47,739 nucleotides of DNA from Candidatus Avelusimicrobium vaccinum (GTDB lineage Bacteria > Elusimicrobiota > Elusimicrobia > Elusimicrobiales > Elusimicrobiaceae): positions 1 to 47,739 of the forward strand of contig CADBIY010000009.1 of NCBI GenBank assembly GCA_902794895.1, in the 5' to 3' direction. Below, one piece after another: positions 24,665-28,864 of the stretch. Both the position numbers and the translations under genes were made by a program. Under the pieces are notes generated by a model. The model saw nothing but the letters and a program-made list of their open reading frames with translations. It was not told where the DNA came from and did not search any database. How positions within the stretch are numbered: position 1 is the first letter of the stretch; each line of letters begins with the position of its first letter.

Positions 24665-25005
24665 GTGTTTTTGTGTTCACAAAAGAATTTTCCTTTTTTC
24701 TATTTGCATAAATAATGACGGTACTTTTTGTATCAACAAAAAGTACAAAAAAATTCGCCTCCGTGCCTATAAAAAGCAGTAAAAAGCGTAAAATTGGCTA
24801 AACTCACTCCGTTCAAACATGGCCAATTTTTAAACCGCTTTTTACGCTTTTTATAAACAGGCCAAGTCGGCAAGGCATCCAAAAGGAAACAACTCCTTTA
24901 TTGAACAGCGGTCAAGTTTTTTGCTTGCTTTTTGTCGGCACAATAAAGTACAAAATCTTTTTTTGGGTTATTTTTCTGTTTGCAGAAAAAGGATTCACAA
25001 AACAC
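24665..25005. repeat. Structured non-coding block rich in inverted repeats, candidate MITE-like element
   Basis: About 340 bp with no credible ORF. Contents: an 11-bp perfect inverted repeat GTACTTTTTGT (24721-24731/24736-24746); a long imperfect one with arms 24768-24798 and 24822-24854 enclosing 23 nt; AAAGGA/TCCTTT around 24884-24899; TTTTTCTG/CAGAAAAA around 24971-24990. Near the ends TCCTTTTTTCT (24691-24701) is inverted as AGAAAAAGGA (24984-24993), and TTCACAAAA is directly repeated at 24676-24684 and 24994-25002, which could be a target-site duplication. No transposase. A transcribed structured RNA is an alternative. Confidence 0.45.
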
Positions 25006-25034
25006 TTGACTCGTTTTTTTTTTTTTGATATACT
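25006..25034 (+). promoter_or_regulatory. Pilin 1 promoter with a T13 tract in the spacer
   Basis: TTGACT (25006-25011), spacer of exactly 17 bp (25012-25028), TATACT (25029-25034) with an extended -10 TG at 25026-25027. Thirteen of the spacer bases are an unbroken T tract (25014-25026). Confidence 0.8.
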
Positions 25035-25049
25035 GATTATGTTGTTACT

Positions 25050-25073
25050 ATGAAAAATAAGGAGTGTGTATGA
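25050..25073 (+). other. Seven-codon upstream ORF overlapping the pilin 1 start
   Basis: ATG at 25050 encodes MKNKECV and stops with a TGA that overlaps the pilin ATG (ATGA at 25070-25073). The pilin ribosome site AAGGAG is inside this mini-ORF. TATGAAAAAT is directly repeated at 25049-25058 and 25069-25078. It may couple or dampen pilin translation, or be chance. Confidence 0.35.
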
Positions 25074-25648
25074 AAAATCACAATACTGGCCGTTTAGGCT
25101 TTACGTTAATAGAATTATTAGTTGTTGTATTAATTATCGGTATTTTGGCCAGTGTTGCCTTGCCGCAATACACAAAAGCGGTCGATAAAAGCCGCGTGGT
25201 GCGCTATTTGCCGCTAATGAAAGAAATTGCTGATGACGCAGAAAGATATTATTTGGAGAATGATGCCTATCCCGCTTCTGCCAGCGGTACAGCCATTAAC
25301 AAAGCGCTGGACATCAACTTGCCGGAGAATTTTGTGAGCAATGAGGTTCAGTCTTTCTCATTTACAAATGCCAACTATTCGTCTATTTTACTTGTGTTAA
25401 AAAAACCGAACGTTACGTTGGCGCGGATGTTAAAACATTCTAAATATGCCGGGGAAAAGGACGGATATACGGCTTGTTCCTCTTCCAATGCAAAAATTTT
25501 TAAAAACGTTTGCCAAAGTTTATGCGGACATAAAACCGTGTGTACGCGTATGTTTTATTATGATCAAGGCCCCAGTTGCACGATTGGAAGTGCAGACCCT
25601 ACGTTTTGTTGGCGCGGAATTACAGAGACGGATCCGGCCTATCAATAG
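25070..25648 (+). CDS. Type IV pilin-like protein (pilin 1)
   Basis: A 192-residue class III-signal protein: short positive leader, prepilin-peptidase site G|FTLIELLVVVLIIGILA with the conserved Glu at +5, then the hydrophobic helix and LPQYTKAVDKSR. The globular part has at least six Cys (CSSSNAKIFKNVCQSLC...), probably disulfide-rich. Major or minor pilin or pseudopilin status cannot be decided. ATG 25070 is chosen because AAGGAG (25059-25064) ends five bases before it; a GTG two codons upstream overlaps that site. The other T4P machinery genes are not in this window; ComEC is. Confidence 0.9.
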   Translation: MKNHNTGRLGFTLIELLVVVLIIGILASVALPQYTKAVDKSRVVRYLPLMKEIADDAERYYLENDAYPASASGTAINKALDINLPENFVSNEVQSFSFTNANYSSILLVLKKPNVTLARMLKHSKYAGEKDGYTACSSSNAKIFKNVCQSLCGHKTVCTRMFYYDQGPSCTIGSADPTFCWRGITETDPAYQ

Positions 25649-28158: not shown

Positions 28159-28671
28159 TTACAGTTCAACATCTTTATAGATCCAACCTTGATTTTCAAG
28201 AGATTTACAAATGGCGCGGCCCAAATCGGTTGTTTCAGTAATACATATATTTAACCATTTATCGTTAGTTCCTTGTTCTCCCCACGCTTCTTCACTTCCC
28301 TTATATATATAAAAAGCATAGCTGTCACCTTTTCTATATAATTCGCCGTAACATTTAAGAGAATCACAATTCATTTCATATTCAAAGTATTTGGTTGTAT
28401 ACAAATTGTCATCAAATTCTCCACCTTGTAAAGTACCAGCAATATCTAAATTAGGCAAATGTATGCCTTGTGCAGGGAAACCGCCATTTTCCAGTAAAAA
28501 TAAATCTACACTATTTTCAATAGTTTTTACATTCAATAAAAGTTCCGTTAATCGGCTTTTTTCAACCGCTTTGTTATATTGTGGCAAAGCGATGGCGGCC
28601 AAAATGCCGATAATTAAAACAACGACTAATAATTCAATCAAGGTGAAACCTTGAGTCTGTTTTGTGTACAT
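28159..28671 (-). CDS. Type IV pilin-like protein (pilin 2)
   Basis: A 170-residue pilin-like protein: leader MYTKQTQG, then FTLIELLVVVLIIGILAAIA with Glu at +5, and LPQYNKAVEKSR, almost identical to pilin 1 over the first 35 mature residues and then divergent (four Cys, acidic C-terminus). That shape (constant N-helix, variable head) is usual for pilin families. AAGGAG lies six bases before the ATG. Its mRNA has a leader of about 190 nt with elaborate structure. Major or minor status unknown. Confidence 0.9.
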   Translation of the reverse strand: MYTKQTQGFTLIELLVVVLIIGILAAIALPQYNKAVEKSRLTELLLNVKTIENSVDLFLLENGGFPAQGIHLPNLDIAGTLQGGEFDDNLYTTKYFEYEMNCDSLKCYGELYRKGDSYAFYIYKGSEEAWGEQGTNDKWLNICITETTDLGRAICKSLENQGWIYKDVEL

Positions 28672-28686
28672 AGTTTTCTCCTTTTA

Positions 28687-28864
28687 GTCGGACACAAAAA
28701 ACGACGATATCAAAGCATAGAGAGTGGCCTTGATAATCGCCGTCTTACCTACCCCTTGCGGAGTAGGTAAAAAACAGGCGATTATTCTCGGACTCTCTAT
28801 AGAATCTTTCGCAAGATTCCATGCAAAGGCTCGCCCTTTGCATCCGACAATAATCTCAAATTAT
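28687..28864 (-). promoter_or_regulatory. Candidate attenuator or riboswitch-like leader RNA of pilin 2
   Basis: Read on the minus strand, 5' to 3': GTCGG (28848-28844); hairpin ATGCAAAGG/CCTTTGCAT (28843-28835/28829-28821); hairpin GAATCTT-GCGA-AAGATTC (28819-28802); TAGAGAGT (28799-28792) pairing with ACTCTCTA (28725-28718); ATAATCGCC (28785-28777) with GGCGATTAT (28741-28733); 11-bp hairpin capped by GCAA (28770-28745). Alternatively 28742-28728 pairs with 28715-28702 (14 bp), followed directly by T6 (28701-28696): a terminator. The two folds are mutually exclusive. Two GNRA loops appear only on this strand. TCCGAC (28692-28687) can pair with the initial GTCGGA. Not matched to any family I know. 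Confidence 0.7.

What the first reader, a model, noticed from the sequence alone, without database searches (positions are those of the whole stretch)
25006..25034. T13 homopolymer in the pilin 1 promoter spacer: candidate phase-variable switch
TTGACT and TATACT are separated by exactly 17 bp, of which 13 are one T run (25014-25026). Established: slipped-strand changes in homopolymers between -35 and -10 switch surface genes in Neisseria (porA, opc) and similar dinucleotide tracts switch Haemophilus fimbriae. Loss or gain of one or two T would move the spacer away from the optimum. The target is a surface pilin, a usual phase-variable class. The current allele reads as ON.
Basis: partly seen in the sequence, partly recalled or inferred. 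Interest (0 to 1): 0.78.

Follow-up and report, generated by a model that had tools for sequence, protein, structure and literature searches.

The report
Pilin promoters with poly-T spacers
The run of 13 T's is one copy of a promoter design that this group of gut bacteria places, almost exclusively, in front of dozens of surface-pilin genes; the run can lengthen or shorten and so probably turns single pilins on or off, but natural selection mostly holds it at the working length and true back-and-forth switching is not yet shown.

Summary
It is not an isolated oddity. Of the 18 runs of at least 11 T in this 1.45-Mb gut Elusimicrobium-type genome, 14 lie upstream of pilin genes on the same strand; the other four sit at contig ends, two of them in the same promoter. 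The same core (TTGACT-[CT][GA]-T12-GA-TA[AC]A[TC]T) stands before up to about 40 pilin genes per genome in two genera of the family and is nearly absent elsewhere in the phylum. Total spacer length is under selection: flanks of 1, 2 or 3 nt go with T13, T12 or T11, all giving 16 bp. In eight other sampled genomes 16 bp is the commonest length. Off-length alleles still make up 0-48% per genome, mostly before intact genes; near-identical promoters here carry T12, T12 and T14. So: a dedicated poly-T-spacer promoter regulon, slippage-prone, ON by default. Phase variation is plausible but unproven: MutS is present, matched tracts in sister species are mostly equal, and no second strain or reads could be examined.

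The parts
25006..25011 (+). -35 hexamer TTGACT
   Evidence: mostly TTGACT in 104 non-redundant promoters (the search pattern itself required TTG)
25012..25013 (+). 2-nt flank CG between -35 and the T run
   Evidence: consensus [CT][GA] in relatives; its length trades off against T-run length
25014..25026 (+). T13 homopolymer filling the promoter spacer
   Evidence: one of 18 T>=11 runs in the genome, 14 of them upstream of pilin genes
25027..25028 (+). GA dinucleotide between T run and -10
   Evidence: A after the required G in 94 of 104
25029..25034 (+). -10 hexamer TATACT (spacer 17 bp)
   Evidence: one search lists the pair with spacer 17, 10 of 12 consensus matches
25041..25069 (+). inferred 5' untranslated leader (start site near 25041 is inference); ribosome-binding site AAGGAG 25059-25064
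   Evidence: sequence; leader similar in paralogous T-run pilins
25070..25648 (+). prepilin gene (192 aa, leader MKNHNTGRLG / FTLIELLVVVLIIGILA), target of the promoter

Best explanation
The T13 run is the spacer of a dedicated sigma-70-type promoter class that drives a large set of type IV pilin-like genes in gut Elusimicrobiaceae. Shown: the core is conserved (TTGACT, 1-5 nt, about 10-13 T, GA, TANANT), it is found almost only before pilin genes, and selection acts on total spacer length (16-17 bp) rather than on T number as such. Shown by comparison: T number changes by one or a few units between similar promoters, giving spacers of 10-21 bp. Inferred: 16-18 bp alleles are ON, and alleles of 14 bp or less, or 19 bp or more, are OFF or weak, so slipped-strand gain or loss of T's turns individual pilins up or down from an ON-by-default state. 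Inferred and least certain (about 50%): that this is reversible and frequent enough within a population to count as phase variation rather than slow evolutionary turnover. The window allele (17 bp) should be ON.
For: Genome-wide placement of T>=11 runs. In relative G050, 23 of 23 runs of at least 10 T in a 400-kb sample are upstream of pilins and none elsewhere. 49 of 66 congeneric genomes carry TTGAC-T10+-TAWA, reversed control 0; genus g11 of the same family also has it, while other families of the phylum have 0 in nearly all genomes and at most 4 in any. A scan of 84,980 species genomes found 39 stretches, nearly all gut Elusimicrobium/Elusimicrobiales MAGs with a pilin downstream. Spacer compensation: flanks of 1, 2, 3 nt with commonest runs T13, T12, T11, all 16 bp (flank 1 rests on one case). 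Interrupted tracts mostly keep 16-18 bp, for example T7-C-T5 = 17. Length variants: 128 promoters of relatives, 16 bp 63%, 15 bp 12%, 14 bp or less 11%; near-identical leaders with T12, T12, T14; off-length promoters mostly before intact ORFs.
Against: Tract length is nearly constant in some species (23/23 T12 in the G050 sample) and in most matched pairs of sister species, which argues for stabilising selection and low effective slippage. MutS is present. The largest contractions (T7-T8) are too short to slip back easily, so some OFF alleles may be dead ends; three T-run pilins in this genome are truncated (75, 102 and 71 aa; spacers 11, 14 and 16). No expression data. Some spread may be assembly error in short-read MAGs.
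Confidence: 0.6

Rival explanations
1. Fixed promoter architecture: the T run is a structural or regulator-recognised element (rigid A-tract DNA between -35 and -10, or the site of a T-tract-binding factor) that co-regulates all pilins. Length changes are harmful accidents removed by selection, not a switch.
For: Purity and length constancy (T12 in 80 of 104 non-redundant promoters; 23/23 in the G050 sample); spacer compensation at 16 bp; equal tracts in matched sister-species loci; MutS present.
Against: Off-length alleles are common in several genomes (12 of 25 outside 16-18 bp here, 11 of 23 in G024) and mostly sit before intact genes. A purely structural role might be expected to tolerate interruptions, yet pure runs dominate.
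Confidence: 0.3
2. Recent duplication or gene conversion: the pilin cassettes (promoter plus signal peptide) multiplied or exchange recently, so the T run is shared by descent and its uniformity says nothing about selection or switching.
For: Promoter plus 5' coding region is homologous between paralogs while the rest diverges; at matched chromosomal sites in sister species the upstream gene is conserved but a different cassette stands there, with the break next to the -35 box (L213/L041; L231/L251 and L233/L248).
Against: Sequence upstream of -35 is unrelated among the 104 non-redundant copies, and leaders and -10 variants differ by subfamily, yet the T run and total spacer length persist; compensation between flank and T number is not expected from copying alone.
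Confidence: 0.07
3. Chance homopolymer, terminator tail or assembly artefact.
For: A consensus promoter of this quality is expected by chance in a stretch this size (2 found, 2.9 expected).
Against: Genome-wide and family-wide placement; no stem-loop precedes the run on this strand; assemblies by many groups and hosts agree.
Confidence: 0.02

Closest known systems
Mycoplasma hyorhinis vlp promoters (poly-A tract between -35 and -10 of each surface lipoprotein gene)
   Same: A family of surface-protein genes, each with its own homopolymer in the promoter spacer (own knowledge of Yogev, Citti and Wise; those papers were not held; PMC4198240 describes the vlp family and cites Citti and Wise 1995).
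   Different: Here T on the coding strand, tens of pilin genes per genome instead of about 7 lipoproteins, an unrelated phylum, MutS present, and tract length mostly constant; switching not shown.
Neisseria porA and opc, Bordetella pertussis fim promoters (homopolymer spacers)
   Same: Homopolymer between promoter elements of surface-protein genes; spacer length sets transcription (own knowledge).
   Different: Those are poly-G or poly-C tracts of one or a few genes; here poly-T in a whole regulon.
Haemophilus influenzae hifA/hifB (TA)n promoter repeats
   Same: Repeat between -35 and -10 of fimbrial genes (own knowledge).
   Different: Dinucleotide repeat in a divergent promoter pair, chaperone-usher fimbriae, one locus.
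Mutation-prone homopolymers without proven reversibility (M. tuberculosis, as discussed in PMC11868660)
   Same: Homopolymer indels above the neutral rate without demonstrated reversible switching.
   Different: Those are separate loci; here one promoter architecture tied to one gene family.

Membership tests
Promoter-type simple-sequence-repeat phase-variable loci | Simple sequence repeat placed where unit number changes promoter spacing | tested here: met
   T13 makes up 13 of 17 spacer bases; same in other pilin promoters
Promoter-type simple-sequence-repeat phase-variable loci | Repeat number varies between copies of otherwise similar promoters | tested here: met
   Spacers 11-21 bp in this genome; near-identical promoters T12, T12, T14
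Promoter-type simple-sequence-repeat phase-variable loci | Repeat number varies between strains or cells of one species at the same locus | not testable with these tools
   One genome per species; the five older-release loci tested match the held assemblies at 100%; no reads
Promoter-type simple-sequence-repeat phase-variable loci | Repeat number at matched loci varies between sister species | tested here: inconclusive
   Mostly equal (T12/T12, T12/T12, T9/T9 in G000/G077; four pairs T12/T12 in G021/G007); differences coincide with swapped cassettes, a truncated gene, or one T11/T12 pair
Promoter-type simple-sequence-repeat phase-variable loci | High-rate, reversible ON/OFF expression | not testable with these tools
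   Required by the definition in PMC11868660; needs experiment
Sigma-70-type promoter | -35 and -10 hexamers at 16-18 bp, conserved against diverged flanks | tested here: met
   104 non-redundant promoters: high information in both hexamers, near zero upstream (hexamers partly imposed by the pattern); 16-bp mode
Sigma-70-type promoter | Mapped transcription start at this -10 | not tested
   no transcript data
Type IV pilin-like proteins | Prepilin N-terminal methylation motif | tested here: met
   PF07963, E 6.7e-7

The most novel reading that the evidence does not exclude
Gut Elusimicrobiaceae carry an exceptionally large set of promoter-type slippage switches: tens of pilin genes per genome, each behind its own poly-T spacer and each able to go OFF or ON independently, giving combinatorial pilus surfaces, with cassettes (promoter plus pilin) also exchanged between chromosomal sites.
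Probability: 0.4. Interest if true: 0.82.

Novelty: new variant of a known kind. Interest (0 to 1): 0.62.

Why it matters
It links an unexplained feature of uncultured gut Elusimicrobia, their very large pilin repertoires, to a single promoter design, and gives a simple read-level test (tract-length spectra in existing metagenomes) of whether these commensals vary their surface stochastically. It also shows a homopolymer that is at once functionally fixed and mutation-prone, which bears on how contingency loci arise.

Tried and rejected
Terminator tail: no stem-loop precedes the run on its strand. Chance: rejected by genome-wide placement; an order-3 Markov model would predict more T>=11 runs (about 80) than the 18 seen, so the placement, not the number, is what is unusual (a crude model). 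The ortholog of the window locus in the nearest relative (G077) is lost at a contig end. Loss of mismatch repair as the driver: MutS is present. Literature search found no report on Elusimicrobia pilin phase variation in the held library; the E. minutum genome paper and the original vlp paper were not held.

Full report
What is there. TTGACT and TATACT are 17 bp apart, 13 of them one T run, and a 192-aa prepilin gene starts at 25070 behind a good ribosome-binding site. The neighbours are ordinary: peptidyl-tRNA hydrolase upstream, DNA ligase LigA and NusB downstream, and a second pilin on the other strand at 28159-28671. The promoter scanner alone gives no support, since two such sites are found where 2.9 are expected.

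It is one of many. The genome (1.45 Mb, 30 contigs) has about 55-61 pilin-like genes. It contains only 18 runs of 11 or more T. Fourteen are upstream of pilin genes on the same strand, mostly ending 39-47 nt before the start codon. Two more are the same promoter (TTGACTAATCG-T-GGTAAAGT) near contig ends; the other two (C19, C21) are also at contig ends. With T>=7, 25 of 59 tabulated pilins carry a T run at promoter distance.

It is a lineage trait. In 66 genomes of the genus the pattern TTGAC-N1-6-T10+-TAWA occurs in 49, with up to 43 copies in one genome and none for the reversed pattern. Across 294 genomes of the phylum it is frequent only in this genus and a second genus of the same family; in other families nearly all genomes have none. 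A scan of 84,980 species genomes with a stricter form gave 39 stretches. Nearly all are gut Elusimicrobium/Elusimicrobiales MAGs (rumen, reindeer and others), with a pilin directly downstream; the few outsiders (Peptoniphilus, a Bacillota bin, LSA5.bin79) have other genes. In a 400-kb sample of the two-contig relative G050, the 23 runs of 10 or more T all precede pilins, all are exactly T12, and no run of 10 or more occurs elsewhere in the sample. Outside that sample G050 also has a few T11, T13 and T14 copies.

What selection sees. In 104 non-redundant promoters, sequence upstream of the -35 box carries almost no information until the last few bases, while C-TTGACT-[CT][GA]-T-run-GA-TA[AC]A[TC]T is conserved; T12 makes up 80 of them (the search pattern itself imposed part of the hexamers and limited T to 10-14). 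When the flank between -35 and the T run is 2 or 3 nt, the commonest T number is 12 or 11, and the single case with 1 nt has T13, so the spacer stays 16 bp. Tracts broken by another base mostly keep 16-18 bp. This is the signature of selection on spacing, and so of a working promoter.

Does it slip? Yes, on an evolutionary scale. Among 128 promoters of seven relatives, 63% have 16 bp, 12% 15 bp and 11% 14 bp or less; this genome is broader (11-21 bp, 13 of 25 at 16-18). One pilin subfamily here has almost identical leaders with T12, T12 and T14. Genes behind off-length promoters are mostly intact: 10 of 12 at 14 bp or less, 7 of 7 at 15. That fits OFF or weak alleles of live genes. Yet matched loci of sister species usually have equal tracts, G050 is almost invariant, and MutS is intact. 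Several matched sites hold different pilin cassettes in sister species, with homology breaking next to the -35 box, so cassette exchange is a second source of variation.

How it most likely works. Sigma-70-type RNA polymerase reads the two hexamers when they are 16-18 bp apart (established for this promoter type; not tested in this organism). The T run makes this distance mutable one base at a time. Selection keeps most copies ON; slips silence or weaken single pilins. Whether cells switch back at useful rates is not shown. Under the definition in PMC11868660, high rate and reversibility are required, so I do not file it as phase variation; I say it is built like one.

Novelty. Homopolymer spacers that switch surface genes are known (M. 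hyorhinis vlp, Neisseria, Bordetella; own knowledge). I found no report of this in Elusimicrobia in the held library. What is new is the scale, the gene family, the T-run architecture with compensated spacing, and its restriction to one family of gut bacteria.

Noticed in passing
window 28671-28776 (-); G000 C28:7869-7991, C8:30212-30333, C16:5161-5290, C3:73284-73408 and others: A second set of pilin genes without T-run promoters carries a two-hairpin 5' leader (GCCGAATGTTT-stem-AAACTACGGCTGTT..stem..AGCCGTTTTT) with 14 of 28 predicted pairs showing compensatory changes, no Rfam match, 14 model matches in this genome and matches in six congeneric genomes. The second stem ends in a U run, so it looks like an attenuator or riboswitch. 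The window copy matches weakly (25 bits, E 0.0028) but folds strongly (z -5.9).
   Followed up: partly
L187-L206 (G050), G021 and G007 loci: One T-run promoter subclass has an inverted repeat GATAAATTTTG..CAAAATTTATC spanning the -10 box and the start codon (55 of 68 copies), encoding the conserved MxKIYQK leader; a possible operator or RNA hairpin.
   Followed up: partly
L213/L041, L211/L065 (G077 vs G000); L231/L251, L233/L248 (G021 vs G007): At the same chromosomal site in sister species the upstream gene is conserved but a different pilin cassette (promoter plus gene) is present, with homology breaking next to the -35 box.
   Followed up: partly
G000 C2:174859, C25:14017, C2:42362, C7:36361: Some pilins have extra sequence of the type HAELVSAS / NSNNEIPNQVWD inserted in the leader peptide before FTLIELL, resembling palindromic repeat elements inserted in frame.
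   Followed up: no
window 24720-24880: Intergenic inverted repeats (GTACTTTTTGTATCAACAAAAAGTAC and AAAAGCGTAAAATTGGC..GCCAATTTTTAAACCGCTTTTTACGCTTTT); the first has a close relative upstream of a pilin in the nearest relative (L167).
   Followed up: no
G000 C19:24589-24602 (L061) and C21:22645-22661 (L062): Two further long homopolymers (T14 just after an ATG; A17 after GGAG) lie at contig ends; coding or leader tracts, or assembly artefacts.
   Followed up: no
G000 C21:18742 (L039); G041 C48:8577, C86:2528: Runs of N lie inside or beside T tracts, as if assemblies broke there; could reflect tract heterogeneity or masking.
   Followed up: no
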